Positions 4,401-40,148 of a DNA stretch of 64,000 nucleotides are shown here, in pieces. The stretch is from assembly GCF_000003855.2 (NCBI RefSeq), contig NW_003101667.1, positions 1,465,581 through 1,529,580 of the forward strand, given 5' to 3'. Both the position numbers and the translations under genes were made by a program. The DNA is from Blastomyces gilchristii SLH14081. Lineage: Eukaryota > Ascomycota > Eurotiomycetes > Onygenales > Ajellomycetaceae. The notes beneath the pieces were generated by a model. It had not been told where the DNA came from, ran no database searches, and worked only from the letters and a program-made list of their open reading frames with translations. Position 1 is the first letter of the stretch. Every line of letters begins with the position of its first letter.

Positions 4401-5932
4401 ACTTTTATGTATAAAACATCTGATTTTTTTCACACTAGTTCAGTAACTAGATTAGATTTTTGAAGAGAATCTAATGAATTAAAATTGATTTTTAAGATAA
4501 ATCAATAAAATCTTTACAATCTCTTTCTTAATATATAGTGAGAAAAAGTATGATATCAATTGATAATAAATCAGATAATATGACAGTTTTTGAGAGAAAA
4601 ACTGATAAAAAATAAATCAATTTTTTGCAGAGAAATTGATTAAAACTATTCAATTTTATTCTAAATTATTCAATTCTTCTCACACAATAAGTATACAACT
4701 CAAATCAGTTAATAAAGAGTGTAAAAAAGAATTAAGTATTAATAAAAGCTCTTCAGTCACTGAAAAAGTAATTCTTACTTAAAAGAATATGAAATTATGA
4801 CAGAAAATAACTCTGTTTTTAATTCTTTGTAAGAATATTGTGTAAAATCCAGAGAAAAACATCTTACTTTTTCAAGAGAAGTAAAAAACTATTTCTAAGA
4901 TCTTTTTTTTTTTTTTGCATTAACTGCTGTAGAAGAATAAGATAGAAACTGCTAAGATATATACTACTGTATACTCTCTATCAAGACTTTTTCTCTTCAG
5001 AGTCTTGATATTATGAAGAATATAAGTCTGTTTCTATATAATAATGTAAATATTGTCAGTGGGATGTAGAGAAACTGGTTATTTATATCTCAAAATAGAA
5101 GACTTTATCAATGATTATATCAATATAGAGTTAATTCTTAAATTCAATAGAAATCTAGTGTTGCTGTTCTCAATCTCTTACAGAATCTATTGAATATTGA
5201 GATATTAAAACTAGATTTAATATATCTCACTGTGCAGGGATCAAAGGCTCAGTCAGATCTTGAAATATACTGATTTTATAGTTGTTATGACTGCTAATTA
5301 TGTATTGAGTACAGTTGCTGAGGTATCTTTTTGTACTTTTCTATCAGAGATGAGCCAGATTGAGAGAGGTGGTATGAGAGTGAGACTTGATGTTGATGTC
5401 TAGATACACTGAAGACAGACTGTGAAGATTGCACTTCAGAAGTGGCTGTTGATTATGTGCTTGATATTATCATCAAGGTATCTTTTTGTATTTTTCTGCC
5501 GGGGATGGGCCAGATTAGGAAGGGCGGTACAAGGGTGGGACTTGGCGTTGGTGTTTTGGAACATCAAAGATGGACAGGGTTTTCGCGGAGGTCACTCCTC
5601 AGATATCTCCACAACTACAGATCAGGGATCTTCCAAAATCAAGAAGATTGGTGTATATGGCTAGGTCTCTTTACCTTACAATTTGTATGGCAATTTGGCC
5701 CGGGGTTGTGGTGTGGTAGGGGAGAATGGGGGATAATCCCACACAGGAGTTTCGAACGACGTCTGGTTCACATTTGGCTGGATAACTCCACCACCACACG
5801 GGGTATGCAGTCGGCGATGGGGTCAAAATGCTCGTATGATCGAGGGCTTTTCGATGGATCTATCGGCGGGTTCTTATTCGAAAAATCGAGCGAGTTCGTG
5901 GTGGCGCGGTTGTATGTATTGCTGACCTCTTT

Positions 5933-11018: not shown

Positions 11019-11030
11019 TATTATCAGTTG

Positions 11031-13203: not shown

Positions 13204-13211
13204 CTCACGCG

Positions 13212-13936: not shown

Positions 13937-13949
13937 AGAAGAAGTGCAT

Positions 13950-15669: not shown

Positions 15670-15674
15670 AGTTC

Positions 15675-16900: not shown

Positions 16901-17029
16901 AAGATTCAGAAGATAACTATAAGAATACTCTGATAAAACAGAGAAAAGATTAGCTTCTATTCAAATTTATAAACAGAAGCTTGAAGAGATCAGATAATAA
17001 TAATTTAAAGAGAAAATAACAATGAATGT

Positions 17030-20000: not shown

Positions 20001-20600
20001 CTATTCTTTCTTACACACAGTTATTATATGAAAGTATTGAATCTTCTAGAAATCATACATTTCATATCAAACCTCTGCAGTTCAATTCAGATCACTGATA
20101 ATATAGTAATAAAGCTCTGAGATATCTGTGACTGAGCAGAAATCTTCATAGCAACTGTGAAACAAGATTAAGAGAATCAAATCAATGTTCACTGAGATTC
20201 TGCTGAGTAATATAAGATAGAAGACTTGATGTGATTGAATCTCAAAAATATATAAATCACATGTTCATCTCATACACTGAATTACTGTCATGTTAAGTAT
20301 AAAGTGATAGAAGTTCTAGATAGTCACAACTACTGTCTTAATATATTATCAGAGATTCATAATGTCTTTTATATGAGCTTGCTTCACTATGCTGTCACTG
20401 ATTCATTCTCTTCTCAACTAATTTCTGACTGACAGCTGCCAGGGATCATAGAAGAAGATAATGAACTTGAATAAGAGATTGAAGATATTCTTGATAAGAG
20501 ACTCTGCAGCTGCAGCTGACAATATCTTGTAAAATGAGTCAGTTATAATTGTCTGATCTGAACTCTAAGTTCTGTGTTATCTGAGATCACAGTTCTTAAC
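17030..20600 (+). pseudogene. Ty3 pol remnant (PR-RT-RH-IN-chromodomain-like)
   Basis: Pol order protease, RT, RNase H, integrase is Ty3-type; Copia would place integrase before RT. The RT catalytic box reads YLNDIL at about 18,162-18,180, with Asp changed to Asn by a G-to-A mutation. The integrase core shows DIVIDFTVNLSES at about 19,570 and SIVSDQ at about 19,747. The tail around 20,440-20,560 has EIEDILDKR and YLVK, the pattern of a chromodomain. In-frame TGA replaces Trp repeatedly. Confidence 0.8.
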
Positions 20601-20639
20601 TGATGAGAACTATACATAATCAGAGAAGAAAGAAGCTAA

Positions 20640-20932
20640 TGTGATAAGCTGCATCTGATCATTATATAGACTATTTCTTTACACTTCATAGATTTCGCTG
20701 AAAGCTCTGATTCTCAGTCATTCTCAATCACTGATTCTCAGTTAAAAAACCTATGAAATTTCTATTCTTTCACTCTGAAGCTTCACTGTGTATATATTAT
20801 ATATGTGTATAAATATTCACTCTGATTACTGATTCTCACATTTTCTCTTTCTTTTCCATCTTTAATGTTTTTCACTTTGTTATATAACATCTATAAATAT
20901 TATACTGATCTATTCGGCGTAGGCCTCTTACA
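20640..20932 (+). repeat. 3' LTR of the Ty3/gypsy element
   Basis: 293 bp, TGTGATAAGCTGC ... CGGCGTAGGCCTCTTACA. It is preceded by a purine-rich tract (about 20,621-20,635) that fits a polypurine priming tract, and followed by the target duplication copy AGTTT. Confidence 0.88.
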
Positions 20933-20937
20933 AGTTT

Positions 20938-22185
20938 AGTAAAATTTCCTTGATTATTTCATTAAACTTAAACTTTATAATCAGCTACTGAGATAATACA
21001 GACTATATATAACTGTCTCATAGTCTGAAAGAATAGACCTCTCTCTGTATTTAATAGTTTAATTATGTTATTCAATAGTGTTTCTACCTTGATAGTTCTT
21101 TATTAAATATGATATTTAAAATTCAACTTGGAGTTTAACCATACTTCTAATTATTTGATATTTAAACTGAGTTTAATCTCTCTATTTAAAAGAGTTAGGC
21201 ATAGTTCTTTCTTATTGAATCTAGGAAAGAAATGAATTAACTCAGTTTTATTCATATTAAATTGAATTTAATTAATATCTGTTCTAACAAAGATTTTCTT
21301 TACTGCTTTTTCAATCACTTTTAAATTCTCTCTAATTGTTTTTAAGCTGTAGACTAGATTAATATCATTCACATAGCTTGAAGATTACACTATTTTCATA
21401 TCTCTATTTTTGAATAGATATGCAGTGTATATTGTAAATAAAATGAGTAAGATTAAAGATTCTTACAGTACTTCTATTTTTATCTCAGTCTTATCTTGTT
21501 TTATTTTATCAAAGAATAGTTGTATAATTCTTTTAGATATAAAATAGTTAACTTATTTTATTAGAGAAAGTGACAGTTTTAACATCTTCAAAGTCTGAAT
21601 TAACTTTGACTTTGAAACATGATCAAATGCTTCTTTTATATCAATAAAAACTGCAGCTGAGACCAGATCTTCATGCTTTTCTATTTAAATATCATGAATA
21701 ACTGAGAGAATAGTGTTAATTGCAGAACATTGCTTTCTATCTCTTATTTATTCACTGAATAAAAGAGAATTATTATTAATAGAGCTTATAAAAGATAGTT
21801 AAGTAGCTATTATCTTTTCTAAAACCTTTTCTAGACAGTTCAATAGAGATATTACTCTATATGACTTAGAAATTAAAGTTTTTCTATTAGGTTTTGCAAG
21901 GATCACTTCAGTGACTTCTCTTCAGTATTCAGAATGATATTCATTTTTCAAAAGATTGAAAAAGAGCTCAAAATATTCATTCTTTAAGTAGAAGTATGTA
22001 TTTTAAATAATTAAGTGATTGATTGAATCAGGCCCTGCAGCAGTTTTAACTGAACTTAAGAAGATAGCTAACTCTAATTCATCTTATATAAGCTCAGATT
22101 ATTTTCAGTTATTTTTATCAATATAGTTATGAAGTGATATATTCTCTTTCTCTGAATCTGAATCTGATGAGTTTTAAAAGAGAAT
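20938..22185 (-). mobile_element. LINE fragment, right part (RT region)
   Basis: Continues the LINE interrupted at 15,669 and covers the RT domain in antisense, matching 9,250-10,268 and going further into the region upstream of the RT. It ends at 22,185 against a minus-strand Ty3 LTR. Heavily mutated. Confidence 0.8.
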
Positions 22186-22505
22186 TATAAGAAGCCTACG
22201 CTGAATAGATCGGTATTATATTTATAGGTCTTATATAACAAAGTGAAAAACATTAGAGAAGGAAAGAAAGAGAAAGTGTGAGAATCAGTAATCAAAGTGA
22301 ATATTTATACATGTATGTGATGATGTACACAGTGGAACTTCAGAGTGAAAGAATAGGGGTTTTCATACGCGGTGAAGCTTCAGAGCGGAAGAATAGAAAT
22401 TTCATAGATTTTCAGCTGAGAATCAGCAACTGAGAATTAGAGTGATAGAAATCTGTGAAGTGTAATGAAATAGTCTATATAATTGATCAGATGCAGTCTG
22501 CTATA
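22186..22505 (-). repeat. Ty3/gypsy LTR, antisense
   Basis: About 320 bp, ending near TCAGATGCAGTCTGCTATA, the mutated complement of the TGTGACAGGCTGCATCTGA start. It holds a less mutated patch with CG (around 22,365-22,385). Confidence 0.7.
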
Positions 22506-23638
22506 TTGATCTCTCTTCTCTTTCTTAATCATACATAGCTCTCATCAGTCAAGGGCTGTGATCTCAGATAATGCAGAACTCAGAGTTCAGATCAGATGAT
22601 TATAACTGACTCATTTCACAAGATATTATCAGTTACAGCTGTGAAGTCTCTTATTAAGAATATCTTCAATCTCTTATTCAAGTTCATTATCTTCTTCTAT
22701 AATCTCTGGCAGCTGTCAGTCAGAAGTCAGTTAAGAAGAAAATAAATCAGTGACAGTGTGACAGAGTAAGCTTATATAAAAGATATTATAAATCTCTGAT
22801 AATGTGTCAAGACAGTAGTTATAACTGTCTAGAACTTCTATCACTTTATACTTTATATAATGATAATTCAGTATATGAGATGAGCATGTAATCTGTATAT
22901 TCTTAAGATTCAATTATACTAGATCTTCTATCTTATATTGCTCAGTGAACATTAATTCAATCTTCTTAATTCTATTTAGTACTCACTATGAAGGCTTCTG
23001 CTCAATTATAAGTATCTCAGAGTTTTATTACTATATTATCAGTGATCTGAATTGAACTGCAGAAGTTCAGTGTGAAATGTATAATCTCTAGAAGATTCAG
23101 TACTTTTATATAATATCTGTGTGTAAGAAAGAATGAGCTTATATCTGTTGAAATAGCATCTCAATCATTGATAGCAACTTCAGTGTGTAGAAGAAGATCA
23201 TATCAATTGTCTTATAAGTGATTGCAGAACTTATAAAGATAATTCTTTACAGTCTGAATTATTCATTCTGATACATCATTGATCTCAGAGTGATAGATAG
23301 TTAATAAACAGTGTATAATCTTGAGAACTTGACAGATTCTTATTTAGACAGTACTCATGAATTAACAGCTCTGATCTGATACTATAGATCTCAGTAATTC
23401 ATATATTCAATAGAATGAGCTTCTTAGAAAAGCTTCAGTGACTTATTCAGTATTCATCTTATTACAAGATTTCAATATTACATTCTTACTTAATCAGTTC
23501 ACAATGATCAGAATGTTTCTATAACTCTTACTCTTAGAGAGATTAATAGTGAAGTCAATTATCATATCTTATCAGATTCTATCAGAGATAGTAAGTGATT
23601 TCAGCAGGCCTTTTCTACAGTTCTTTCATAAAATGATT
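22186..23638 (-). mobile_element. Ty3/gypsy 3' fragment, antisense (LTR plus integrase)
   Basis: The LTR in reverse is at 22,186-22,505 (starts TATAAGAAGCCTACGC, the mutated complement of the LTR end). Chromodomain-like and integrase regions follow, reading on the minus strand up to 23,638, where homology to the 19,500 region stops and an unrelated inverted repeat begins. A 60-codon open piece at 22,913-22,731 lies in the part after the integrase core. Confidence 0.75.
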
Positions 23639-24361
23639 GAAGTTCATAAATACTATGTATAACTCAGCTTGAATGCTATTATACATTTGACCTTTACATT
23701 TTATCTTTCTATTATGAATACTTCTAGTAGTTAACAGTACATATTACATCAAGCTGCAAACATCTGAATAATTACCTGCGAGCACTTATTCTTACATTTA
23801 CAGATTATGATTTAATAGATAATCTTAAGTGATTACAGCTTAAGAAAGTTTCTTTTCAGTTTATAAATATTTCTGAAGATTATATCTAGAGACTCAGTTT
23901 GAGAGTATTTACAGATAGTAAGTATTTCTTATAGAAAAATAGCTTAATTCTGTGAGAGATACTCAAGAATGTTCTTTACTAAGATTAATTTATTTATAAG
24001 TTTAGAGAGTTTCTCTGTTATAGATGTAGAGAATAATATTTTATAAGTAATTAATAAATTCTCTGAGACTTCTTTTACAGAGATTATTTATAATTTAAGT
24101 AACTGCTTCTGAGTATCTGCAGTAGAGTTCACAGAGATTAAAGTATATAAGTTTCTAGTTCTTTTAGTTATAATAGACAGTTACTAACTAATAGAGCTTG
24201 AAATATAAGAATAAGTACTTACAGATAATTATTCAGATACTTACAACTTGATATAATATATAATATTAACTATTAGAAGTATTCACAGTAGAAAGATAAA
24301 ATGTAGAGATTAAATATATAATAGTATTCAAGCTGAGTTATGAATAGTATTCATGAACTTC
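23639..24361. repeat. Long inverted repeat (arms about 155 bp)
   Basis: 23,639-23,795 and 24,208-24,361 are reverse complements with scattered transitions (GAAGTTCATAAATACTATG against the complement of CATGAATAGTATTCATGAACTTC-type sequence). About 410 bp of AT-rich DNA lies between them. The right arm continues into a roughly 270-bp unit that recurs at 39,877-40,148, so each arm is probably part of an LTR-like repeat in opposite orientation. Element type not recognised. Confidence 0.65.
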
Positions 24362-24463
24362 AGTCTATATAGTTATATATAGTCAAGAGCTGCTAACTCT
24401 ATTGATTACGCGAGAGATAGAAATAGAGGTAAAGAATCCGCGAGAAGTGAGATTTCTTACAGT
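24362..24463. repeat. Right part of the 270-bp LTR-like repeat
   Basis: Continues the right arm; matches 40,040-40,148 ('gtcaagagctgctaactcta' region, then 'agaggtaaagaatc'). Keeps two CG-bearing words (ACGCGAG, CCGCGAG) that are lost in the 40-kb copy. Confidence 0.6.
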
Positions 24464-25665
24464 AATTGACACTGTTCTTTCAGTTGTTCACAATATTTAA
24501 ATAGCAAAGCATGAAGATCTGGTCTCAACTGCAGTTTTTATTGATATAAAAGATACATTTGATCATGTTTCAAAGTTTAAGATGATTCAAACTTTGAAGA
24601 TGTTAAAACTGTTACTTTCTCTAATAAAATAAGTTAACTGTTTTATATTTAAAAGAATTATACAACTATTCTTTGATGAAATGAAATAAGATAAGACTGA
24701 GATAAAAAATAGAAGTACTGTAAGAATCTTTAATCTCATCTGTTTTATTTACAATATACACTACATATCTATTCAAGAAGAGAGAGATGAAAATAATGAG
24801 ATTCTTAAGTTATATAGATGATATTGATCTAGTCTACAGTTTAAAGACAATTAAAGAGAATTTAGAAGTGATTGAGAAAGCAGTAAAGAAAATCTTTATT
24901 AGAGCAGATATCAATCTAATTCAATTTAATATAAATAAAACTGAGTTAATTCACTTTTTTTCAAGATTCAATAAGAAAAACCTAAGTCTAACTCTTTTGA
25001 ATAAAGAGATTAAACTCAGTTTGAATATTAAATAACTAGAAGTATAATTAAACTCCAAGTTAAATTTTAAATATTATATTTAACAAAGAATTATCAAGGC
25101 AGAGAGACTACTGAATAGTGTAATCAGACTATTAAATACTGAGAGAGGTCTATTCTTTCAGACTATGAGACAATTATACATAGTCTGTATCATCTCAGTA
25201 GCTGATTATAAAGTTTAAGTTTAATAAAATAATCAAGATAATTTCACTGAACTCTTTCAAAGTCTGTAAAACAGAGCTTTGAGAAGAATTCTGAAAGTAT
25301 TCAAATCATCTTCTATTAAAGTAATGAAAATTGAAGCTTCAATTCTATCTTCTACTATTTAATTTGAAAAGACCTGCATGAACTATGCTCTGAGAGTCAT
25401 GAAGATAAGCTTAAATTATATAATCAGAGAAAGAGTCTCTTCTTCATTTTCATCAATTAACTCAGAAAATGAACTGAATTGAAATGAATTTCTTGATTGA
25501 AATAAGAATAATACTTCAAAGAAAATACTCTCTCAACTGTATAGACTATATTCACTGATTAAAAATTAATTTTCTTTATTAAATATTGAGAAAATTGATC
25601 ATGAGAAGATATCTCTCTGAAGAGAAAAGCTGAAATCTCTCATAGACTTACAAATAAGTGAATCA
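24464..25665 (+). mobile_element. LINE fragment (RT to start of RNase H)
   Basis: Plus-strand LINE piece with RT: DTVLSVVHNI, FIDIKDTFDHVS, then YIDDIDLVYSLK at about 24,812-24,850, where the YxDD box is still intact. An 82-codon open piece lies at 24,787-25,035. It breaks off at 25,665, before the RNase H, where the 5' unit array begins. Confidence 0.8.
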
Positions 25666-25686
25666 ATATATCATTTACAACTACTC

Positions 25687-26060
25687 CACCACGAACTCGC
25701 TCGATTTTTTGAATAAGAACCCGCCGATAGATTCATCGAAAAGCCCTCAATCATACAAGCATTTTGACCCCATCGCCGACTGCATACCCCGTGTGGTGGT
25801 GGAGTTATCCAGTCAAATGTAAACCAGACATTGTTCAAAACTCCTGTGTGGGATTATCCCCTGTTCTCCCCTACCACACCACAACCCCGGGCCAAATTGC
25901 CATACAAATTGTAAGATGGAAAGACCTAGCCATATGCATCAATCTTCTCAATTTTGAAAGATTCTCAATCTGTAATTGTGAAGATATCTGAGAAGTAATA
26001 TCAGTGAAAACCCTGTCCATCTTTGATGTTTCAAAACATCAACACCAAGTCTCATTCTTG
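25687..26060 (+). repeat. GC-retaining LINE 5' segment, copy 1
   Basis: Keeps CC, GG and CG words (CATACCCCGTGTGGTGG, CAACCCCGGGCCAAATTGCC) while the neighbouring LINE parts have lost them. Matches 5,480-5,930 (minus), 28,230-28,640 and 30,070-30,430. Interrupted at 26,061 by the TA-flanked MITE; the match resumes at 26,750. Confidence 0.8.
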
Positions 26061-26062
26061 TA

Positions 26063-26749
26063 ATATAATCAATCACCTAACACTCATTTCCACCTAACAC
26101 TCACCTTTGTAAATCAATTACAATCAACTTTAAATGTTAATATCTCAATAAATATTCATTATTTTAATTTTCTAATTTGTAATCTATAAATATCAAGACT
26201 TATAGTATAATATAATTCAAAATTATTATAATATAGTTAAAATTAATTAAAATATGAATTCAATTAGAAAATAAAATACAGTAAAATAAAATATATAATA
26301 TTTTATTATAAATTAAGAAATATGTATTATATATTATTAAAAATAATAATTCTTATATAAATATATTATAATTTAATAAATATTAAATTATTTTATATAA
26401 GAATTCTATATTTTAATTTTTAAGAATTTTTTTATTTTTTTATTATAATTTTTTTTATAAATTACAAGTAAAATATTGACAATTCTTGAAATTTTAAAAT
26501 TTGAAAAATAATTTATTAAATATAAATATATTTAAATGATTTAATAAAATAATTTATTTAAATTACAACTTTAAAGTATCAATAATACACTGTTATTACA
26601 ATAATATAATATATATCTACAAATTATTATTCTGTTTTTTAGAATAGTTTCAAATAAATATTCATTGAGATATGAATATTTGAAGTTGATTGTAATTGAT
26701 TTACAAGGTGAGTGTTAGGTGGAAATGAGTGTTAGATGATTGATTATGT
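26063..26749 (+). mobile_element. TA-flanked MITE with 67-bp terminal inverted repeats
   Basis: 687 bp, flanked by TA at 26,061-26,062 and 26,750-26,751. The empty site is visible in sister units (near 28,600 and 30,440), which show one TA. The ends ATATAATCAATCACC... and the complement of ...GATGATTGATTATGT match over about 67 bp with a few transitions. Inside, it is almost pure AT without a frame. TA duplication with long inverted repeats points to Tc1/mariner-type mobilisation. Confidence 0.85.
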
Positions 26750-27935
26750 TATCACTCTTCTCAATCTGACTCATTCTCAGCAGAAAAATACAAAAAGATA
26801 TCTCAGTAATAATATTAAGTATATAATCAACAGACACTTCTGAAGTGTAATCTCTGTGAATACTCTGTCTGTCTTCAGTGTATCTAGACATTAACATCAA
26901 GTCTCACTCTTGTACTGCCCCTCTCAATCTGGCTCATTCTCAGCAGAATAATATAAAAAGATATCTTGACAACAGTATTCAATACATAATCAGTGAACAA
27001 TGAGTCAACAGAAGAAGTCAACAGTATATCAACATCTATAAATTCAGTATATCTCAAGATCTGACTGAGCCTTTGATCCCTGCACAGTGAGAAATATTAA
27101 ATCTAGTTTTAATATCTCAATATTTAATAGATTCTGCAAGAGATTGATAACAGCAATACTAGATTTCTATTGAATTTGAGAATTAACTCTATATTAATAT
27201 AATCATTGATAAAGTCTTCTATTTTAAGTTATAAATAACCAGTTCCTCTACATCTCACTGATAATATTTATATTATTATATAGAAACAGACTTATATTCT
27301 CTATAATATCAAGACTCTGAAGAGGAAAAGTCTTGATAGAGAGTATATAGTAGTGTATATCTTAGTAGTTTCTATCTCATTCTTCTACAGCAGTTAATAC
27401 AAAAAAAAACAAAAATCTTAGAAATAGTTTTTTACTTCTCTTGAAAAAGTAAGATGTTTTTCTCTGAGTTTTATACAATATTCTTACAAAGAATTAAAAA
27501 CAGAGTTGTTTTCTGTTATAATTTTATATTCTTTTAAGTGAGAATTACTTTTTCAGTGACTGAAGAGCTTTCATTAATACTTAATTCTCTTTTACACTCT
27601 CTATTAACTGATTTGAGTTGTACACTTGTTGTGTGAGAAGAATTGAATGATTTAGAATAAAATTGAATAGTTTTAATCAATTTCTCTGCAAAAAATTGAT
27701 TTATTTTTTGTTAGTTTTTCTCTCAAAAACTGTCATATTATCTGATTTATTATCAATTGATATCATACTTTTTCTCACTGTATTTCAAGAAAGAGATTGT
27801 AAAGATTTTATTGATTTATCTTAAAAATCAATTCTAGTTTATTAGATTCTCTTCAAAAATCTAACCTAGTTACTGAACTAGTGTGAAAAAAATCAGGTGT
27901 TTTATACATAAAAGTCTTTCATTCTTCTTTTGAAA

Positions 27936-28113
27936 CAGTCTGATCAACTTTTCAATTGAAAATAGACTAATAAACCTCTCAACTGAAACAGTCTGATCAA
28001 CTTTTCATTTGAAAATAGATTAATAAATCTCTTAATTAAAACAGTCTGATCAACTTTTCATTTGAAAATAGATTGATAAATCTCTTAATTTAAACAGTCT
28101 GATCAACTTTTCA
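27936..28113 (+). repeat. 53-bp tandem repeats upstream of ORF1, unit 1 (4 copies)
   Basis: The word CAGTCTGATCAACTTTTCA starts at 27,936, 27,989, 28,042 and 28,095, exactly 53 bp apart, and ends about 14 bp before the ORF1 ATG at 28,127. The same array precedes the ATG in unit 2 (about 29,778-29,955), with three decayed copies in unit 3 (about 31,630-31,750). Confidence 0.85.
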
Positions 28114-28229
28114 TTCAGTGAGTAAAATGAGTTCAAGAGTACACTTAGTTGATGTGAAAAAAGATGTTTTCCCAGATGCTGTTTCTGAGATTGAAATTCT
28201 AAAGAGAAGAAAGAAGAAAGAAATCAAAA

Positions 28230-28640
28230 GCACTTCATCATGAACTCACTCAATTTTTTGAATAAGAACCCACCGATAGACCCATTGAAAAGCCCTCAAT
28301 CATATGAGCATTTTGACCCCATCGCCGACTGCATACCCCGTGTGGTGGTGGAGTTATCCAGCCAAACATGAACCAGACATTGTTCGAAACTCCTGTGTGG
28401 GATTATCCCCTGTTCTCCCCTATCACACCACAACCCCGGGCCAAATTGCCATACAAATTGTAAGGTGGAAAGACCTAGTCATATGCATCAATCTTCTCAA
28501 TTTTGGAAGATCCCTGATCTGTAATTGTGGAGATATCTGAGAAGTGACATCTGTGAAAACCCTGTTCATCTTTGATGTTCCAACACCAAGTCTCACCCTT
28601 GTACCGCCCTTCCCAATCTGGCCCATTCCCAGCAGAACAA
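28230..28640 (+). repeat. GC-retaining LINE 5' segment, copy 2
   Basis: About 400 bp with CCCC, GGG and CG words inside a repeat that is otherwise stripped of them. Contains an A-box-like TGGTGGAGTT (28,346-28,355) and a B-box-like GTTCGAAAC (28,382-28,390) 36 bp apart. No convincing protein: frames of 78 and 88 codons exist on both strands, but nothing is recognised. Confidence 0.8.
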
Positions 28641-30069
28641 TACAAAAAGATACCTTGGTGATAATATCAAGCACATAATCAACAGCCACTTCTGAAGTGC
28701 AATCTTCACAGTCTGTCTTCAGTGTATCTAGACATCAACACCAAGTCTCACTCTCATACCACCTCTCTCAATCTGGCTCATCTCTGATAGAAAAGTACAA
28801 AAAGATACCTCAGCAACAGTACTCAATACATAATCAGCAGACAACAAGTCAACAGAACAAGTCAACAGCATGTCAATAACTATAAATTCAGTATATTTCA
28901 AGGTCTGACTGAGCCTTTGATCCCTGCACAGTGAGATATATTAAATCTAGTTTTAATATCTTAATATTCAATAGATTCTGCAAGAGATTGAGAATAGCAA
29001 TACTAGATTTCTATTGAATTTAAGAATTAACTCTATATTAATATAATCATTGATAAAGTCTTCTATTTTGAGATATAAATAATCAGTTCCTCTACATTCT
29101 GCTGACAATATTTATATTATTATATAGAAACAGACTTATATTCTCTATAATATCAAGACTCTGAAGAGGAAAAGTCTTGATAGAGAGTATATAGTAGTGT
29201 ATATCTTAGTAGTTTCTATCTCATTCTTCTACAGCAGTTAATACAAAAAAAAACAAAAATCTTAGAAATAGTTTTTTACTTCTCTTGAAAAAGTAAGATG
29301 TTTTTCTCTGAGTTTTATACAATATTCTTACAAAGAATTAAAAACAGAGTTGTTTTCTGTTATAATTTTATATTCTTTTAAGTGAGAATTACTTTTTCAG
29401 TGACTGAAGAGCTTTCATTAATACTTAATTCTCTTTTACACTCTCTATTAACTGATTTGAGTTGTACACTTGTTGTGTGAGAAGAATTGAATGATTTAGA
29501 ATAAAATTGAATAGTTTTAATCAATTTCTCTGCAAAAAATTGATTTATTTTTTGTTAGTTTTTCTCTCAAAAACTGTCATATTATCTGATTTATTATCAA
29601 TTGATATTATACTTTTTCTCACTGTATTTCAAGAAAGAGATTGTAAAGATTTTATTGATTTATCTTAAAAATCAATTCTAGTTTATTAGATTCTCTTCAA
29701 AAATCTAACCTAGTTACTGAACTAGTGTGAAAAAAATCAGGTGTTTTATACATAAAAGTCTTTCATTCTTCTTTTGAAACAGTCTGATCAACTTTTCAAT
29801 TGAAAATAGACTAATAAATCTCTCAACTGAAACAGTCTGATCAACTTTTCATTTGAAAATAGATTAATAAATCTCTCAATTAAAACAGTCTGATCAACTT
29901 TTCATTTGAAAATAGATTGATAAATCTCTCAATTTAAACAGTCTGATCAACTTTTCATTCAGTGAGTAAAATGAGTTCAAGAGTACACTCAGTTAATGTG
30001 GAAAAAGATGTTTTCCCAGATGCTGTTCCTGAGATTGAAATTCTAAAGAGAAGAAAGAAGAAAGAAATC

Positions 30070-30430
30070 AAAAGCACTTCATCATGAACTTGCTCAATTT
30101 TTTGAATAAGAACCCGCTGATAGACTCATTGAAAAGCCCTCAATCATATGAGCATTTTGACCCCATCGCTGACCGCATACCCCGTGTGGTGGTGGAGTTA
30201 TCCAGCCAAACATGAACCAGATATTGTTCAAAACTCCTGTGTGGGATTATCCCCTGTTCTCCCCTATCACACCACAACCCCGGGCCAAATTGCCATACAA
30301 ATTGTAAGGTGGAAAGACCTAGTCATATGCATCAATCTTCTCGATTTTGGAAGATCCCTGATCTGTAATTGTGGAGATATCTGAGAAGTGACATCTGCGA
30401 AAACCCTGTCCATCTTTGATATTTCAACAC
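30070..30430 (+). repeat. GC-retaining LINE 5' segment, copy 3
   Basis: Nearly the same as copy 2 but a little more mutated (GTTCAAAAC where copy 2 has GTTCGAAAC; CCGCTGATAG for CCACCGATAG-type sequence). Frame of 78 codons on plus at 30,148, product not recognised. Confidence 0.78.
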
Positions 30431-31763
30431 CAAGTCTCACCCTCATATCACCCTTCTCAATCTGGCTCATCCCCAGCAGAACAATACAAAAAGATACCTC
30501 AGTGATAATATCAAGCACATAATCAACAGCTACTTCTGAAGTGCAATCTTCACAGTCTGTCTTCAGTGTATCTAGACATCAACATCAAGTCTCACTCTCA
30601 TACCACCTCTCTCAATCTGGCTCATCTCTGATAGAAAAGTACAAAAAGATACCTCAGCAACAGTACTCAATACATAATCAGTGAACAACAAGTCAACAGA
30701 ACAAGTCAACAGCATGTCAACAACTATAAATTCAGTATATTTCAAGGTCTGACTGAGCCTTTGATCCCTGCACAGTGAGATATATTAAATCTAGTTTTAA
30801 TATCTCAATATTCAATAGATTCTGCAAGAGATTGAGAATAGCAACACTAGATTTCTATTGAATTTAAGAATTAACTCTATATTAATATAATCATTGATAA
30901 AGTCTTCTATTTTGAGATATAAATAATCAGTTCCTCTACATTCTGCTGACAATATTTATATTATTATATAGAAACAGACTTATATTCTCTATAATATCAA
31001 GACTCTGAAGAGGAAAAGTCTTGATAGAGAGTATATAGTAGTGTATATCTTAGTAGTTTCTATCTCATTCTTCTACAGCAGTTAATACAAAAAAAAAATA
31101 AAAATAAAAATCTTAGAAATAGTTTTTTACTTCTCTTGAAAAAGTAAGATGTTTTTCTCTGAGTTTTATACAATATTCTTATAAAGAATTAAAAACAGAG
31201 TTGTTTTCTGTTATAATTTTATATTCTTTTAAGTGAGAATTACTTTTTCAGTGACTGAAGAGCTTTCATTAATACTTAATTCTCTTTTACACTCTCTATT
31301 AACTGATTTGAGTTGTACACTTGTTGTGTGAGAAGAATTGAATAATTTAGAATAAAATTGAATAGTTTTAATCAATTTCTCTGCAAAAAATTAATTTATT
31401 TTTTATTAGTTTTTCTCTCAAAAACTGTCATATCATCTGATTTATTATCAATTGATATCATACTTTTTCTCACTGTATTTCAAGAAAGAGATTGTAAAGA
31501 TTTTATTAATTTATCTTAAAAATCAATTCTAGTTTATTAGATTCTCTTTAAAAATCTAACCTAGTTACTGAACTAGTGTGAAAAAAATCAGGTATTTTAT
31601 ACATAAAAGTCTTTTATTCTTCTTTTGAAACAGTCTGACCAACTTTTCAATTGAAAACAGACTTAGAAATCTCTTAATTGAAACAGTCTGATCAACTTGT
31701 TAAAAGAGTTTAATACATATCTCAATTAAAACAGTCTGATCAACTTTTCATTGAGTGAGAATA

Positions 31764-33752
31764 ATGAGTTTAAAAATACACTCAGTTAATGTGAAAAAAG
31801 AGCCCCGGTGGCCGAATGGTTAATGCGGCCACCCGGTAGCGCCTTGGCGTGGGAAACCAAGGCGCGTGGGTTCGAAACCCGCAGGGGATACATTAAATCC
31901 GGAACTCAAGCACCTCAGGTTTCTAATAAATACAGAGGTGTACAAATCACTTCAATGAATCGCTCTATGTTCCTGGGCTGGGAAGTTATTATTGCATGTA
32001 TCTAATTGTCACTTCTTTGTATTTTCCTATGTTCTTGTTATCTTGGTGTGATCTCAACACCTGTATTTCCTCCTGTATAACCAACACTTGACCTGTATTT
32101 AACATCATGCAAGGACTCATCATTAGCTCCGCTTGCATATAAGTATAATGGAAGAATAATAATAATAATAATAATGTGAAAAAAGATGCTTTCTTAAATG
32201 CTATTTCTGAGATTGAAATTCTGAAGAGAAGAAAGAAAGAAGAAATAGAGAAATAACAAGTTCTTAAAATACAGAAACTTGAAAAAGTAAGCAAGATTCT
32301 TGAAAAGCAGTGTCTGAGTGAGATAAATAAAGAAGTTCTGTTAATTCTTCATACTCAGGCTAGACAACTACAGGAGATGATCAAGTTCAAACTTGAAATT
32401 TCAAACACAGTTCAAAAAACATTGAAAATTCCTAGTATAATCACTGACTTCTTATCTTGCTCTTCTTTCTCTTTTTCTACTTCTTCTTCTTCTTTGAATC
32501 AGAAGAAAACATATACTCAAGCAGCTGAATCTGCTGTCTTTAAATCTGCTATCTCAAAACCTGCTCAAAATTCTAAGAAAACTGAGAAGAATAATACTCA
32601 TACTTCTATTCATAGAAAAGTGAAGAAAAAAATGCAAAAGAAGAAAAACTTCTAAATCTTCAGAATTAGAAGACTTATTCTCAAAGTCTTAAATCAGAAT
32701 ATCTTACAAAGAAACAAGCTAAACTCAAATTCTTATTTTTCAGAATTAGAAATGAAATTAATCAGTAGTTCTTTTCTCAGTTAATAACTGATATTGAAGC
32801 TCAAAAACCAGTTATAGCTTCAATTGAGTCATTCTTCTTTGAAAACTTCATCATTCTGACTACAATGTCTGAATTCAGTATGGAATTCCTTATTCAGAAT
32901 GAGAATCTCTGAAAATCAGTAGTAGAATCTTTGTTAAACATAATAATTCTATCTAAGAGAGATGAAAAGTGAGACAAATTCATTCTTTATACTATTTCAG
33001 TTGAAATTTTTGACTGTGAAGAAGAAATGCTACTTCTCAAAAATGAATTAGAAGAATACAACTCTATTCAACTGAGAAAAGAGCCTGTGTGATTAAATTC
33101 AATTGAGTTCAGATAAAGCAGAAGAAATGCCTCTGTGCTAGTATATATAAAAATACTTGAACAGTCAAAGATCTCTGAAGTAAGAGTAATAGATTTAAAA
33201 ATGAGAGTTCATGAATACAAAGACTCAAGAATGAATCTCAAAACTCAAACACAGTGTTCAAACTATCAAAGATATGAACTCTTTATAATCTTCTACTTTA
33301 GAGACTTAAAATATACATTCTGTGTCAGAGATCACAAAACTAGTGAGCATAAATGTGAAACATGCTCAAAAAGAGATGAAATATGTCAATACACTATGCT
33401 TAAATACTCTAATTACAAAGAAAAACATGCATCTAGCTCAAAAGAATGTATATTTACTTTAAGAACTCAAAAGAACTGAAGAAAAGATGAAGCTCAAAGC
33501 AAATCTAGAACTGAAGAGAATAGTTAAGTCAGTAAACTCACAACTGTAAGCTTAAAAAGAAGAAACTCTCAGCTATTTAAATCTTCAAACTTCAATTCTT
33601 CAGCTAAATATAAACAGAATTTGAATCCTCAAACTCCTGTTAAGATTAGAGAATTGAGAAATGACTCTGATAATAAACTAGATATAATACAAGTAGTTGA
33701 GATTCCTACTTTTCAGAATAGTTATAATCTACTATCTGATGATAGTGATTAG
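31764..33752 (+). pseudogene. LINE ORF1, interrupted by SINE and mutations
   Basis: Starts MSLKIHSVNVKK; the SINE lies between 31,801 and 32,176. After it come a Lys/Glu-rich coiled-coil-like stretch, a Ser-rich linker (SCSSFSFSTSSSSLNQKK at about 32,455-32,508), and the zinc-knuckle array around 33,255-33,450 (CSNYQRYELF, CETCSKRDEICQ). One knuckle cysteine has become Tyr. It ends LLSDDSD before a TAG at 33,750-33,752. Confidence 0.7.
31802..32175 (+). mobile_element. tRNA-derived SINE (374 bp) with target duplication
   Basis: Inserted in LINE ORF1. An 11-bp direct repeat GTGAAAAAAGA flanks it (31,791-31,801 and 32,176-32,186), 14 bp if the preceding AAT is counted. The head is tRNA-like: A box TGGCCGAATGG at 31,809-31,819, B box GGTTCGAAACC at 31,869-31,879, and a T arm GTGGG/CCCGC. 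The tail is (AAT)n. The last bases before the tail, TATAATGGAAGAATAATAAT, match the LINE 3' end TATAATTGAAGAATAATAAT with one difference. GC is normal and unmutated, so it is young or was below the mutation length limit. Confidence 0.88.
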
Positions 33753-33779
33753 ATTCTACTCTACTCTCTTTTAGTATAA

Positions 33780-36700
33780 ATATACAATAAAAACAATGAA
33801 AAAAGTTTAAAAACTCTTCAAAAATCACATTTATTTAAAATAATGTGAATAGAAACTTAAATTGCATTTATTCTTGTCTTCAAATTGTATTTGAATAAAA
33901 AGTTGATTTTATACTACTTCAGAAGCTGAATTTTGATGCTGAGTAATAATATGTCATTTCTCATTCAAGCTACTACTGCTTTCTATCTCAAAAGTCTGAG
34001 ATAAAGTCAAGAGTAGTGATCTATGAAAGAAAGAGATTAAGATATTAATTTAATCTAAGATTTAATATCATGTCTGACCCTGATATTCTAGTGAGTGATA
34101 TTATAGATAAAGAGAATGAGTTTGATACTATACAGCTCATAAATATCTATAATGAAAAGTTATTGAAGAAAAATAATAACATCTGAATAATTAATAGAGA
34201 ATTTCTGAACATAACTTCATCAAGAAACTCTATAATTGTAGAAGATTTTAATGCACATTATCTCTGATGAAATTCAGAATGCAAAAGAGCAGTAAGAGCT
34301 GATAATCTAATTGAATGAATTTTTGAGCATTTAATAGATTTAGTTAACAAGTCTAATCAATAAACATTCTTTAGAAAAGACATGAAATAGAAATCTATTA
34401 TAGATCTAATCTTCATGTCATAAAATCTAATGAAAAAAAGACTTATAAACTGGTTTATTGATTCAAATGAAACCGCAGAATCATATCATAAGATCATTCA
34501 ATTTAATATTAAACTGAGTGAAAAATAAAGAAGTGAAAATCCTCTTCTCTCTAATCAGTATAACTTTGAAAAAGCTAATTGAAAAGCAGTTGAAGAAAGA
34601 GTAAAACAGCTGAAATCTGAAAGACAGAGTGATCTCTATTGAAATCAAAGTCAAGATATCTTAAATAAAATGCTTGAGAATAGAGTAAAGCTGATTATAT
34701 CTATTCTTCTAACAAGTATTGAAGAAAATATTTCAAAGAAAAGGTCTTCTGAGTATTTCAAACCTTGATGAAATGAGAATATCACTTCTAAAAGAAAGAA
34801 ATTAGTCACTGCTAAAAGAGATTGAAAGAATAACTTAATATCTAATGAAGAGTTCAAAGCTATTTAAAATGAATATTTTTCAGATATTAAAAGAGTCAAA
34901 ACAGATTACTGAAATAAATTTCTTAAAGAAGTATAAGAAAAAGAAGTTTTTAAAGCCTTTAAGTATACTAAAACAAGAAGTGTAGCAAAGCTTTCAACCT
35001 TAAAATATGAATTTCAGAATGAATTGTATACAGCAAACTCTTTTGAGAAAAAATGTCAAGCTTTTATAAGAATTTACTTTTAAAACTCATCACATTTAGA
35101 AGAGAAGAATATGTTATTTCATGAATATATTAATGAAAATAACTGGGAATGGCCTGAGCTTACATGTGATGAACTAGAGTCAGTAATATTCTCAAGTTCA
35201 ATTAAAACTGCTGCAGAGCCTGATTCAATTAATCACTTGATTATTCAAAACACATATTCCTACTTGAAGAATGAATATTTTAAGCTCTTTGTTAATCTCT
35301 TAAAAAATGATTATTATTCTAAATACTGAAGAGAAGCTACTGAAGTAATTCTTACAAAATCTAATAGAAAAGCTTCAATTTCTAAGTCATATAGAGTAAT
35401 ATCTCTGTTGAACTGTTTAAGAAAAATTCTAGAAAAGATAATAGCTACTAGATTATCTTTTATAAGCTCTATTAATAATTCTCTTCTATTTAATGAATAA
35501 ATGAGAGATAGAAAACAATGTTCTGCAATTGACACTGTTCTTTCAGTTATTCATAATATTTAAGTAGTAAAGCATGAAGACCTGGTCTCAACTGCAGTTT
35601 TTATTGATATAAAAGATGCATTTGATCATGTTTCAAAGTCTAAGATGATTCAAACTTTGAAGATGTTAAAACTGCCACTTTCTCTAATAAAATGAGTTAA
35701 TTGTTTTATATCTAAAAGAATTATATAACTATTCTTTGATGGAAGAAAACAAGATAAAACTGAGATAAAAATAGAAGTATCACAAGAATCTTCAATCTTA
35801 TCTGTTTTATTTGCAATATACACTGCATATCTATTCAAGAATAGAGACATGAAAATAGTGAGATCTTCAAGTTATATAGATAATATTAATCTACTCTACA
35901 GTTCAAAGACAATCAAAGAGAATTTAGAAGTAATTGAGAAAGCAGTAAAGAAAATCTTTATTAGAGTAGATATCAATCTAATTCAATTTAATATGAATAA
36001 AACTGAGCTAATTCACTTTTTTTCCAGATTTAATGAAAAAGAACTAAGTCTAACTCTTTTAAATAAAGAGATTAAACCCAGTTTGAATGTCAAATAAACT
36101 AGAAGTATGGATTAAACTCTAAGTTGAATTTTAAATATCATATTCAACAAAGAATTATCAAGACAGAGAGACTACTGAATAGTATAATCAGACTATTAAA
36201 TACTGAGAGAGATCTATTCTTTCAGACTATGAGACAGTTATACATAGCCTGTATTATCTCAGTAGCTGATTATGAAGTTCAAGTTTGATGAAATAATCAA
36301 GATAATTTCACTGAACTCTTTCAAAGTTTATAAAACAGAGCTTTGAGAAGAATTCTGAGAGCATTCAAATCATCTTCTATTAAAGCAATGAAAATTAATG
36401 CTTCAATCTCATCTTCTGCTATTTGATTTAAAAAAGCCTGTATAAACTATGCTCTGAGAGTCATAAAGATGAGCTTAAATTATATAATCAGAGAAAGAGT
36501 CTCTTCTTCATTTTCATTAGTTAACTCAGGAAATGAACTGAATTAAAATAGATTTCTTGATTGAAATTAGAATAATGCTTTAAAGAAAATGCTCTCTCAA
36601 CTGTATAGACTATATTCACTTCTTAAAAATCAATTTTCTGTATTAAATGTTGAGAAAATTGATCATGAGAAGATATCTCTCTGAAGAGAAAAGCTGAAAT

Positions 36701-37730
36701 CTCTCATTAACTTACAAATAAGTGAACTATCTAAAGAGAGTGAATATGAACAGCATTTGAAAAAGATCTCTACAATTAATATAAAAGACTCTATTCTGAT
36801 TTACTCAGATGACTCAAAAAATAAGAATTTGAATAGATTAGACACAGGCATTGCTTATACTGAAGATAATATCAATTTTATCTCAGATTTCTGAAATTTA
36901 GACTGTGAATCTAAAGTCTTTGATACTGAACTATTTGTAATAGTGAAAGCTTTCAAACTCATTGAAATAAAATCTTATAAAAGAGAAAATAGTTTGAAAG
37001 AGATATAAATATTCTCTAATAGTCAAGCTGCTTTAAAAAGACTTAGAAATAGTCAGATTTATAATGATCAAATGAATCTTGAACTGATTTTAAACTCTGT
37101 TTTGAAAATTTAAAAGAGAAGAACATCAAAACTGATAATTCATCTGTATTGAGTTCCTGCTTATATAAATATTCATGACAATGAATTGACTGATTCAGCT
37201 GTAAAAAAGAGTTCAGAATTAATCAGATCTATTCAAAAAACAGTGTTCTGATCTTTTATAATGAGAAAGATAAAAGAATCTTATTTAAACAAGTGAAATG
37301 AAAGCTAGCAGAAACAAAAGAAGAGCATACATTATTCAAGATTTGAGACAAAATCAAAGTGAAAATCTTGTTTAATTAAATGTAAAAAGAAAATATTCTC
37401 ATCTATAATTCAGCTGAAACTAGAACATGATTATCTCAAATTCTATATACAAAGATTTAATGATAGATTTGATTCAACAGAGTGCTCATTCTGCAATGTG
37501 AATGAAAACTCTGAGTATATTATAATGTATTATACATTATACAATAGTCTCAGAGTCAGATTAAAGAAGAAGTATGATTTAAATTAATTAAATATGAGGT
37601 TCTCATTCTCAACTGAGACAGGAATTAAATACTTAATAGACTTTCTATCAGAAACTCAAGCAGTTACAAGAAAATGACTGAATTCAGAAGTATCTGAATA
37701 TGAAGAGATGGAAATTGATTAGATATAGTC
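33780..37730 (+). pseudogene. LINE ORF2 (endonuclease, RT, RNase H), mutated
   Basis: The endonuclease part reads IIVEDFNAHYL and SIIDLIFMS at about 34,220-34,420, the GDFNAHH and DLTF boxes of APE-type LINE nucleases. The RT part reads FIDIKDAFDHVS (about 35,600), then SYIDNINLL (35,867-35,893), where the catalytic YxDD has become YIDN. RNase H has YSDDSKNKNL (about 36,800) and SQAALKRL. A C-terminal CSFCNVNENSEY knuckle closes it. Stops, mostly TGA at Trp positions, throughout. Confidence 0.8.
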
Positions 37731-38019
37731 TGTTAAAACAGCTATATACTATCTTTTAATAATTTTATTTTGTTATAGTCTCTCTTTACTGTACTTGTTT
37801 CTTTCTGTTCTTTTCTATATATCTATTTAATGTGTCTATCTTTAAGACTATGTTCTCTTTTCCTTTGTTATGATATTTTCAAATGATTTCAAAGTATCAG
37901 AAGGTGTTGAAATACTGCAATTTGTAAACAGTTTTTGTATTCTGAGCTGGAATTTTCTGATTTTACATATCTGAAATTGATAAATGTATAATAGTTGACT
38001 CTATAGATATAGGAAAAAC

Positions 38020-38042
38020 CCTGAGAACTAAAGGTTCTCAGG
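38020..38042 (+). other. LINE 3' UTR hairpin
   Basis: CCTGAGAAC, 5-nt loop, GTTCTCAGG: a perfect 9-bp stem about 45 bp before the AAT tail. The same hairpin is intact at 1,595-1,616 and (minus) 7,507-7,529, and mutated at about 39,040. It is probably read by the LINE reverse transcriptase; that is inference. Confidence 0.7.
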
Positions 38043-38117
38043 TAGGTGTCATAGTCTCTGACTGCATACATCTATAATTGAAGAATAATAATAATAATAA
38101 TAATAATTAAATACTAT

Positions 38118-39120
38118 TATAAAGTTTTAAAAGAGAAGAATATTAAAACTGATAATTCATCTACACTAAGTTTCTGCTTATATGAATATTTATGACAATG
38201 AATTGACTGATTCAGCAGTAAAAAAGAGTTCAGAATTAAGCAGATATATTCAAAAAACAGTGTTCTGATCTTTTATAAAGAGAAAGATAAAAGAATCTTA
38301 TTTAAATAAGTGAAATGAAAGCTGGCAGAAACAAAAGAAGAGTATATATTATTCAAGATTTGAGATAAAATCTAAGTGAAAATCTTGTTCAATTAAATGT
38401 AAAAAGAAAATATTCTCATCTATAATTTAGCTGAAACTAGAACATAGTTATTTCAAATCTTATATATAAAGATTTGATGATAGATTTAATTCAACAGAAT
38501 GCTCATTCTGCAATGTAAATGAAAATTCTAAGTATATTTTAATATATTATGTATTATACAGTAGTCTCAGAGTCAGATTAAAGAAGAAGTATGATTTAAA
38601 TCAATTAAATATAAGATTCTTATTCTCAACTGAGACAGTAATTAAATACTTAATAGACTTTCTATCAGAAACTCAAGCAGTGATAAGAAAATAGCTAAAT
38701 TCAGAAATATCTGAATATGAAGAGATGAAAATTGATTAAATATAGTCTGTTAAAACAGCTATACATTATCTTTTAGTAATTTTATTTTATCATAGTCTTT
38801 CTTTACTTTACTTTTTCTTTTTTTTATTCTTTTCTATCTATTGATTTAGTATGTCTATCTTTAAGACTATATTCTCTTTTCTTTTATCATGATATTATCA
38901 AATGATTTCAAAGTATTAGAAGGTGTTAAAATACTGTAATTTATAAACAGTTTTTATATTCTGAGCTGGAATTTTCTGATTTTATATATCTGAAATTGAT
39001 AAATGTATAATATTTAACTTTATAGATATAGAAAAAACTCTGAGAACTAAAAGTTCTCAAATAGATGTCATAGTCTCTGACTATATACATCTATAATTGA
39101 AGAATAATAATAATAATAAT
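38118..39120 (+). mobile_element. LINE fragment, 5'-truncated 3' end
   Basis: Second 3' end directly after the first, covering the RNase H end, zinc knuckle, 3' UTR and (AAT)n tail (39,101-39,120). 5' truncation with a tail is the usual product of LINE insertion. More mutated than the copy before it, and its 3' hairpin is broken. Confidence 0.82.
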
Positions 39121-39616
39121 TACTGAGATTATAAATTTCATATTTAATCTCACTTAATCTGATCTCATATATTTCTTAGTATGAATCTCACTGAGACTAA
39201 TTATTAAAACAACATACAAAGTGACTATATATCAGATCTGAAAATGAAATCATGTCTTAGAAAAAATAAGAGAGTGATTTCATTTGATTTTATTTAGTTC
39301 TATTCTTAGCATAAAGTTACTATTTTTAGATATTTTAAGGTTTTTTTTAACTATTTTTAATTTTTTAAAAAGTAATGCTTTTTGATAATACTTAAATAAG
39401 ATTTAAAGTCATTTAAAGCAGTAAAAATAATTTAAATTGAGAAGTGAAAATCATGATCTGATTTGAAAAATGTAATAAGAGTAGACAGTAAGTCTCACTG
39501 AGACAGTATAAGACTACTATCTAATCTTAAAACAGTGTAATGAGATCAGTTAGATTGATAATAAGACTATTAAATATTCTGATTCTAATCTCAGACACAG
39601 TTACACGGTCAGTTTA
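39121..39616 (-). mobile_element. hAT-like element, antisense, mutated
   Basis: Reverse copy of the 13,212 element. The plus strand ends ACACGGTCAGTTTA at 39,616, and the left part matches the right end of the family (AATTTCATATTTAATCTCA). The left end is eroded next to the LINE tail. No target duplication seen because both neighbours are other repeats. Confidence 0.75.
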
Positions 39617-39876
39617 ACTGCGTCTGATCAATTATATAGACTATTTCATTACACTTTATAGATTTCTATTCTTCTGCTCTGAAGCTCTGATTCTCAGCTG
39701 AAAAACTCACAGAATTTCTATTCTTCTACTCTCAAGCTTTATTATGTATGTGTATAAATATTCACTCTGATTACTAATTCTCATACTTTCTCTTTTTCCC
39801 TTCTTTAATGTTTTCTACTTTTATATTATAAGATCTATATATATTATACTGATCTATTCAGTCTAGACCTCTTACA
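39617..39876 (+). repeat. Ty3/gypsy LTR, 5'-truncated
   Basis: Starts ACTGCGTCTGATCAATT, lacking the first TGTGACGGG-type bases, and ends GACCTCTTACA at 39,876. The body matches the other LTRs. Solo or truncated LTR between an hAT copy and the 270-bp repeat. Confidence 0.75.
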
Positions 39877-40148
39877 CTAACAGAACTTAAAATATAAGAA
39901 TAAGTACTTATAGATAATTATTCAGTGATTCACAGCTTAATATAATATATAATAATAACTACTAGAAGTATTTATAATAGAAAGATAAGTATAAAAATTA
40001 AATATATAGTAGTATTTAAGCTGAGGTATAAATAGTAGTTATGAACTTTAGTCTATATAGTTGTGTATAGTCAAGAGCTACTAACTCTATTAATTATATA
40101 AGAGATAGAAATAGAGGTAAAGAATCTGTAAGAAGTAGAATTTCTTAT
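39877..40148. repeat. 270-bp LTR-like repeat
   Basis: Matches 24,190-24,463 along its length, with transitions. Possibly an LTR of another element; no pol sequence is attached to it here. Confidence 0.6.

What the first reader, a model, noticed from the sequence alone, without database searches (positions are those of the whole stretch)
28230..28640. A 400-bp part of the repeat is spared from mutation in every copy
The GC-retaining segment at the start of the LINE 5' unit (5,480-5,930 minus, 25,687-26,060, 28,230-28,640, 30,070-30,430) keeps runs such as CAACCCCGGGCCAAATTGCC, while sequence on both sides in the same repeat unit has lost almost all CC, GG and CG. The copies are repeated, close together and part of 1.84-kb duplicates, so a repeat-sensing mutator should have hit them. 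The sparing must come from the segment itself: protection, later replacement by conversion from an intact source, or capture after mutation.
Basis: partly seen in the sequence, partly recalled or inferred. Interest (0 to 1): 0.75.

Follow-up and report, generated by a model that had tools for sequence, protein, structure and literature searches.

The report
Mutation-shielded start of a fungal retrotransposon
Hundreds of copies of a fungal jumping gene were riddled with C-to-T mutations except near their starting end, where one kind of mutation almost disappears; much of the contrast was inherited from an already damaged parent copy.

Summary
The segment is the 5' end of a non-LTR retrotransposon (LINE) in a Blastomyces-like genome; copies start near window 25681, 28230, 30074 and 5909(-). 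Hundreds of dispersed copies share it. First, sparing is graded and context-specific: in the first 250 bp 3 of 30 CA sites are mutated in any of 25 copies, against 73 of 86 at 650-1450; relative to 250-600, CC is reduced four- to fivefold and CG about twofold. Second, not every copy is spared: two tandem heads here have 18 and 20 of 87 CC/CG sites mutated, against a median of 5 in 25 dispersed copies. Most of the GC contrast appears inherited, the body being already depleted before these copies spread. Private mutations and differences between tandem units show protection continuing after insertion, also in heads flanked by LINE on both sides. That speaks against later conversion, a pure edge effect or insertion-site composition. 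Best reading (moderate confidence): the 5' promoter/start region is kept out of reach of the non-CpG C-to-T mutator. The chromatin step is inferred.

The parts
25681..26034 (+). LINE 5' head, unit 1 (outermost; interrupted after about 354 bp by an AT-rich insertion)
   Evidence: left flank unique
28230..28929 (+). LINE 5' head, unit 2 (given finding; GC 42.9%)
   Evidence: CC/CG mutated 18/87 in 0-300
28930..30073 (+). AT-rich remainder of the 1,844-bp tandem 5' unit
30074..30773 (+). LINE 5' head, unit 3 (GC 41.9%)
   Evidence: CC/CG mutated 20/87 in 0-300
30774..38110 (+). rest of unit 3 and LINE body to its AAT/TAA-repeat 3' end (right limit about 38,100; interrupted by a SINE at 31803-32170)
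33117..33476 (+). open piece with a degraded cysteine-rich (zinc-knuckle-like) stretch, probable ORF1
   Evidence: read by eye; no Pfam match
35729..36094 (+). degraded reverse-transcriptase piece
   Evidence: relatives lie inside RVT_1 matches at the seven places compared; the piece itself gives no Pfam match
38126..39120 (+). second copy of the LINE's last 1 kb, ending in the same tail
5210..5909 (-). LINE 5' head of another copy (GC 44.9%; CC/CG mutated 4/87, 4/88)

Best explanation
The segment is the 5' terminal region of a LINE, the place where such elements usually carry their transcription start and internal promoter (recalled). SHOWN: the copies share an already CC/CG-depleted body and a largely intact head, and afterwards the C-to-T mutator (CC, CG > CA > CT) went on acting on the body while CA, and to a lesser degree CC, changes fell towards the 5' end; CG changes in the head are only about half as frequent as further in. 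SHOWN: the CA deficit persists in units of tandem arrays and head mutation does not follow insertion-site GC. INFERRED: the head is kept open (promoter, nucleosome-poor, unmethylated), so the non-CpG part of a RIP-like, methylation-linked mutator rarely acts there, leaving mainly CpG decay. INFERRED: promoter integrity also filtered which copies could act as sources, which together with mobilisation in trans would explain how a body-dead lineage reached hundreds of copies.
For: Site level, 25 dispersed copies: CA sites with any mutation 3/30 (1-250), 31/57 (250-600), 29/38 (650-1000), 44/48 (1000-1450); Mann-Whitney 1.8e-5 (against 250-600) and 5e-12 (against 650-1450); with local GC matched (17 against 43 CA sites) P = 0.02. 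Singletons: CA 1/909 in 0-300, 6/642 in 300-650, 29/1262 in 650-2500 (first against last Fisher 2e-6), while singleton transversions are 10/7499, 7/7845 and, in 650-1500, 53/20731 (first against last P = 0.06). 51 heads, summed: 0-250 CA 8/1524, CC 60/2218, CG 244/1913; 250-600 CA 210/2690, CC 190/1814, CG 156/681. Four within-array unit pairs, differences at consensus CA sites: head 1/119, 250-600 20/222, body 31/240 (head against body P = 4e-5). Head mutation does not follow left-flank GC (rho -0.10, n = 37, P = 0.56). Four of four RT-selected elements whose 5' end was covered in the expected orientation have 1-4 of 88 CC/CG sites mutated.
Against: No chromatin, methylation, transcript or start-site data exist here; promoter status is an assumption (one B-box-like match, no A box, no TATA in the head). 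CT sites show no clear sparing against 250-600 (P = 0.28). CG is hit at 12.8% in the head, so this is not general protection. Heads in multi-head loci are hit more than solitary ones (CG 85/369 against 159/1544; CC 30/425 against 30/1755), which an edge effect also predicts; L028's two heads are inverted, not tandem, and were counted among those ten. The 38 copies were picked by similarity to a mutated copy, so rates are not those of the whole family. Transversions are also somewhat lower in the head, so some selection is possible. The pairs are not independent (one L017 unit is used twice), and when contexts were taken from each copy rather than from the consensus the head-body difference shrank (CA 17/390 against 40/467, P = 0.02; CA+CT 18/606 against 53/1201, P = 0.16); I prefer the consensus contexts because CG decay creates new CA sites, but that choice was mine.
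Confidence: 0.43

Rival explanations
1. Selection on source lineages only: body-dead copies are moved in trans, only those with an intact promoter head are transcribed, so every newborn copy has an intact head and an inherited AT-rich body; after insertion all parts mutate alike.
For: Body depletion looks ancestral: 1.4 CC/CG targets per copy at 1000-1500 against 77.6 at 0-300, minority C in T columns not enriched before C or G; in the RT-3' part residual targets are shared far above independence (e.g. 14 against 0.6 expected). A SINE with the same 3' tail is abundant and 97-100% alike in the places scored, consistent with trans mobilisation.
Against: Equal post-insertion rates are rejected for CA: singletons 1/909 against 29/1262, tandem-unit differences 1/119 against 31/240 (weaker by the other counting). 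Selection that strong would also remove transversions, which fall only about twofold.
Confidence: 0.25
2. Repeat-edge effect: the mutator senses homologous DNA and is weak within a few hundred bp of the end of the shared block, which for full-length copies is position 0.
For: Graded rise from the terminus; heads in multi-head loci are hit more than solitary ones, and within arrays the difference between head and body is smaller by the counting; a 490-bp repeat has GC 38-43% at its ends and 19-21% in its middle in 21 copies; the LINE's last 100 bp keep slightly more CC/CG than the next 100 in 5 of the 9 copies.
Against: Units with LINE sequence on both sides still have CA 1/119 in the head against 31/240 in the body at consensus sites. 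The LINE 3' end is not comparably spared (GC 22-31%, 0-6 CC/CG per 100 bp in the last 100 bp of 9 copies). The 490-bp repeat has CC/CG mutated 36% and 22% and CA 9% and 9% in its terminal 60-bp bins, inside the ranges seen within it (14-54%, 6-21%).
Confidence: 0.15
3. Chimeric source: an intact 5' head was captured once by a LINE whose body was already mutated, and the chimera amplified.
For: Body depleted before dispersal; the head-body transition is shared by the copies that continue past it.
Against: Explains the GC contrast but not the continuing CA deficit in private and tandem-unit differences; mutation rises gradually, with an intermediate zone at 250-600, rather than at one junction.
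Confidence: 0.12
4. Later replacement of heads by gene conversion from an intact source.
For: Hundreds of heads carry unmutated words.
Against: Distances in head and body correlate as well as body parts do with each other; transversion diversity is similar in 0-450 (0.2-0.5%) and 650-1500 (0.4-0.7%), though it is 1.7% at 450-650 and 1.3-2.6% beyond 1700.
Confidence: 0.04

Closest known systems
Repeat-induced point mutation (RIP) of Neurospora and other Pezizomycotina
   Same: C-to-T changes on both strands of dispersed repeats; AT-rich tracts; heads in multi-head loci hit more
   Different: Here CC and CG are the depleted contexts and CA is near expectation in the AT-rich tracts (CC 0.21-0.30, CG 0.03-0.14, CA 0.95-1.09 in two stretches), whereas CpA is the usual target (start of abstract of PMC2621366 in the listing; passage of PMC10787394); and this element's 5' end is largely exempt at CA and CC
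Tad1-like non-LTR elements reported in Blastomyces (PMC4595289; section 9 and passages read)
   Same: non-LTR element in the GC-poor tracts
   Different: The parts read name Tad1-like repeats but say nothing of a GC-rich 5' end or of mutation context; the clade was not tested here
CpG-island-like, mutation-spared promoters of vertebrates (recalled)
   Same: a promoter-proximal stretch that keeps its C while the surroundings lose it
   Different: here CG is the least spared context and CA the most spared
Short LTRs and fragments that escape RIP (crapaud, Podospora; PMC10787394, passages read)
   Same: part of a retrotransposon family keeps high GC
   Different: there whole short copies escape; here one end of long copies does

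Membership tests
LINE / non-LTR retrotransposon | reverse transcriptase domain | tested here: met
   RT relatives of window 35729-36094 lie inside RVT_1 matches above the cut-off at the seven places compared (C7:2491824, C4:3512639, C16:1202014, C10:1673714, C10:526911, C4:3723573, C55:74054); the window piece alone gives no Pfam hit
LINE / non-LTR retrotransposon | simple-repeat or A-rich 3' tail | tested here: met
   the nine 3' ends printed end in an AAT/TAA repeat
LINE / non-LTR retrotransposon | no long terminal repeats | not tested
   the 5' head was not seen at the nine 3' ends, but no LTR search was run
LINE / non-LTR retrotransposon | target-site duplications | tested here: inconclusive
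   none found for the one window element with both ends, whose 3' end is disturbed
Tad1 clade | RT phylogeny | not tested
   clade only suggested by the literature on Blastomyces
RIP | C-to-T on both strands of dispersed repeats | tested here: met
RIP | confined to repeats | not tested
   mutation in unique sequence was not measured; one search compares composition only
RIP | CpA as preferred context (Neurospora type) | tested here: not met
   CA 0.95-1.09, CC 0.21-0.30, CG 0.03-0.14 obs/exp; so 'RIP-like' only
RIP | occurs in the sexual cycle and needs RID/DIM-2 | not testable with these tools
   no crosses or mutants
Promoter / open-chromatin island | transcription start and open chromatin over the head | not testable with these tools
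   only weak motif matches

The most novel reading that the evidence does not exclude
The first roughly 250 bp of this LINE act as a portable shield: wherever they sit, even inside tandem arrays, they exclude the non-CpG arm of the fungal repeat mutator while leaving CpG mutation, which let a coding-dead LINE lineage keep a working promoter and go on multiplying in a mutating genome.
Probability: 0.23. Interest if true: 0.8.

Novelty: new variant of a known kind. Interest (0 to 1): 0.52.

Why it matters
RIP-like defence is usually described as acting along whole repeats (recalled). A repeat whose 5' end evades one sequence context of the mutator, in hundreds of natural copies, would separate two arms of the process (CpG and non-CpG), show how retrotransposons persist under it, and give a natural assay for what shields DNA from repeat-directed mutation.

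Tried and rejected
Edge effect as sole cause, gene conversion, insertion-site GC, selection as sole cause and local GC were each tested and judged insufficient; the edge effect keeps some support. An early idea that the left flank is the same LINE's body was wrong: it is unique in 40 of 42 copies. A bacterial promoter scan and the plasmid search were uninformative. ARAGORN found no tRNA in the window, Rfam one. Literature: the rows shown by searches (8 to 15 rows each, titles and starts of abstracts) held no paper on 5'-end sparing in a fungal LINE; only open-licence PMC papers are covered. Passages were read in PMC4595289 (plus section 9), PMC11540331, PMC7296669, PMC4352252, PMC9910759 and PMC10787394; none was read whole.

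Rows dropped: the multiple alignment used 28 of 42 copies (25 dispersed, 3 window); 14 were left out for insertions, truncation or several heads. The copy taken for L017 is an inner unit. Columns with too few letters were skipped. In one search the 2000-2500 bin includes L010, whose homology ends near 2034. One search used 21 of the 28.

Full report
WHAT IT IS. The window is G000:C16:1465581-1529580 of a 74.8-Mb genome. A Ubp6-type protein at 43587-45128(-) is 93% identical to one from Blastomyces parvus, so the source is a Blastomyces or near relative; the species was not determined. Published Blastomyces genomes have GC-poor tracts of 29.6-31% GC filled with repeats (PMC4595289, passages and section 9). 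In two AT-rich stretches of the window CC (0.21-0.30) and CG (0.03-0.14) are depleted and CA (0.95-1.09) is not, which differs from the CpA preference usually given for RIP (PMC2621366, start of abstract in the listing; PMC10787394, passage).

The segment is the 5' end of a LINE. In 42 copies (38 dispersed, 4 in the window) the sequence right of position 0 is shared and, by the test, the left flank is shared with no other copy in 40; the two exceptions are the tandem pair 28230/30074. The element runs through a degraded RT (35729-36094) to an AAT/TAA-repeat tail at about 38,100, printed for nine 3' ends. The RT piece gives no Pfam match by itself; its assignment rests on relatives lying inside RVT_1 matches at the seven places compared. 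In this window the element has three 5' units (25681, 28230, 30074), the last two 1,844 bp apart, then the body.

IS THE SPARING REAL. Mean GC falls from 41-53% in the first 600 bp to 23-28% at 700-1500 bp in 38 oriented copies. Literal words from the head occur 469 and 400 times genome-wide, controls 0. Four had the 5' end in the expected orientation and all four have only 1-4 of 88 CC/CG sites mutated in 0-300; one locus held a head in the other orientation with 18/82; two matched only from 411 and 463 on, and one (L048) not at all. A head mutated beyond recognition would escape such searches.

HOW MUCH IS INHERITED. If each copy had been mutated independently from an intact source, surviving CC/CG sites would be scattered among copies. 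In the body they are few (mean 6.1 per copy at 650-1000, 1.4 at 1000-1500, against 77.6 at 0-300), a C found where most copies have T is not preferentially before C or G (1000-1500: before A 0.0057, C 0.0069, G 0, T 0.0037), and in the RT-3' part copies share survivors far above independence (for example 14 against 0.6). Site-specific resistance could mimic sharing, but the simplest reading is that the ancestor of these copies was already depleted. So most of the GC contrast predates the insertions.

IS THERE CONTINUING PROTECTION. Yes for CA and CC, by measures matched for context. (1) Singletons among 25 copies: CA 1/909 in 0-300, 6/642 in 300-650, 29/1262 in 650-2500; CT 0/564 in 0-300 against 40/4808 in 650-2500 (P = 0.02); singleton transversions 10/7499 in 0-300, 7/7845 in 300-650, 53/20731 in 650-1500 (first against last P = 0.06). 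(2) Per site: 3/30 CA sites mutated in the head against 31/57, 29/38 and 44/48 further in; with GC matched P = 0.02; CT not different from 250-600, P = 0.28. (3) Differences between units of the same locus at consensus CA sites: 1/119 in 0-250, 20/222 in 250-600, 31/240 in 650-1440 (four pairs, one unit used twice). With contexts read from each copy instead, the contrast is smaller: CA 17/390 in 0-300 against 40/467 in the body, P = 0.02, and CA+CT together P = 0.16; CG decay turns into apparent CA sites under that counting, so I weight more. The rise is gradual, and context matters: summed from the 51 heads, going from 0-250 to 250-600 CA rises from 8/1524 to 210/2690, CC from 60/2218 to 190/1814, CG only from 244/1913 to 156/681. 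The head is thus nearly closed to CA, partly to CC, and little to CG mutation.

WHAT THE CAUSE IS NOT. Head and body distances correlate (0-300 with 650-1000 r = 0.51; 650-1000 with 1000-1500 r = 0.57; 21 copies), so heads were not replaced later. Head mutation is unrelated to left-flank GC (rho -0.10, n = 37). A pure edge effect is hard to square with the CA counts in tandem units and with the unspared 3' end. But repeat geometry contributes: a 490-bp repeat has GC-richer ends, though its terminal bins are mutated within the range of its inside, and heads in multi-head loci are hit more (CC/CG 135/858 against 225/3572, Mann-Whitney P = 0.001; L028's inverted pair included). In the window the inner heads (13/38 and 15/38 CG) exceed the outer (10/38), in L017 likewise (13 and 16 against 4 of 38), but in L035 not (3 and 3 of 38).

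MECHANISM. I favour a promoter/start region kept open so that the non-CpG arm of the mutator rarely acts on it. No chromatin or transcript data were available and motif evidence is weak. A tRNA-derived SINE at 31803-32170 (1155 candidates; 40 full-length places scored, 97-100% alike) carries the same kind of tail as the LINE and an exact flanking repeat of about 11-14 bp read by eye (sequence). It suggests that LINE-type machinery worked recently and that elements without coding capacity could spread in trans, which would explain a body-dead LINE lineage.

VERDICT. Real, graded and context-specific; overstated as spared in every copy. It is a new variant of a known kind, with an inferred mechanism.

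Noticed in passing
window 31803-32170 (+): tRNA-derived SINE inside the LINE, 97-100% identical in 40 full-length places scored of 1155 candidates, ending in the LINE's kind of tail with a flanking repeat of about 11-14 bp: a probable SINE/LINE pair.
   Followed up: partly
window 39123-39613 and 40371-40846: About 490-bp MITE-like repeat, 21 full-length matches in the window and fetched loci, GC high at both ends and 19-21% in the middle; terminal inverted repeat read by eye.
   Followed up: partly
window about 26040-26750: AT-rich (about 15% GC) element with long inverted terminal repeats that keep CC/GG while the interior has almost none (read by eye); it interrupts the first LINE unit.
   Followed up: no
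window 11000-25600 and 32000-40500: CC/CG are depleted with CA near expectation, unlike the CpA preference usually quoted for RIP.
   Followed up: partly
L017, L035 and window 25681-31900: LINE 5' units in tandem with different periods (about 1.1, 1.6 and 1.84 kb), reminiscent of tandem promoter monomers of mammalian LINEs (recalled).
   Followed up: partly
window 10937-11017 (-): Rfam tRNA match (34.3 bits) inside an isolated GC-rich island of the AT-rich tract.
   Followed up: no
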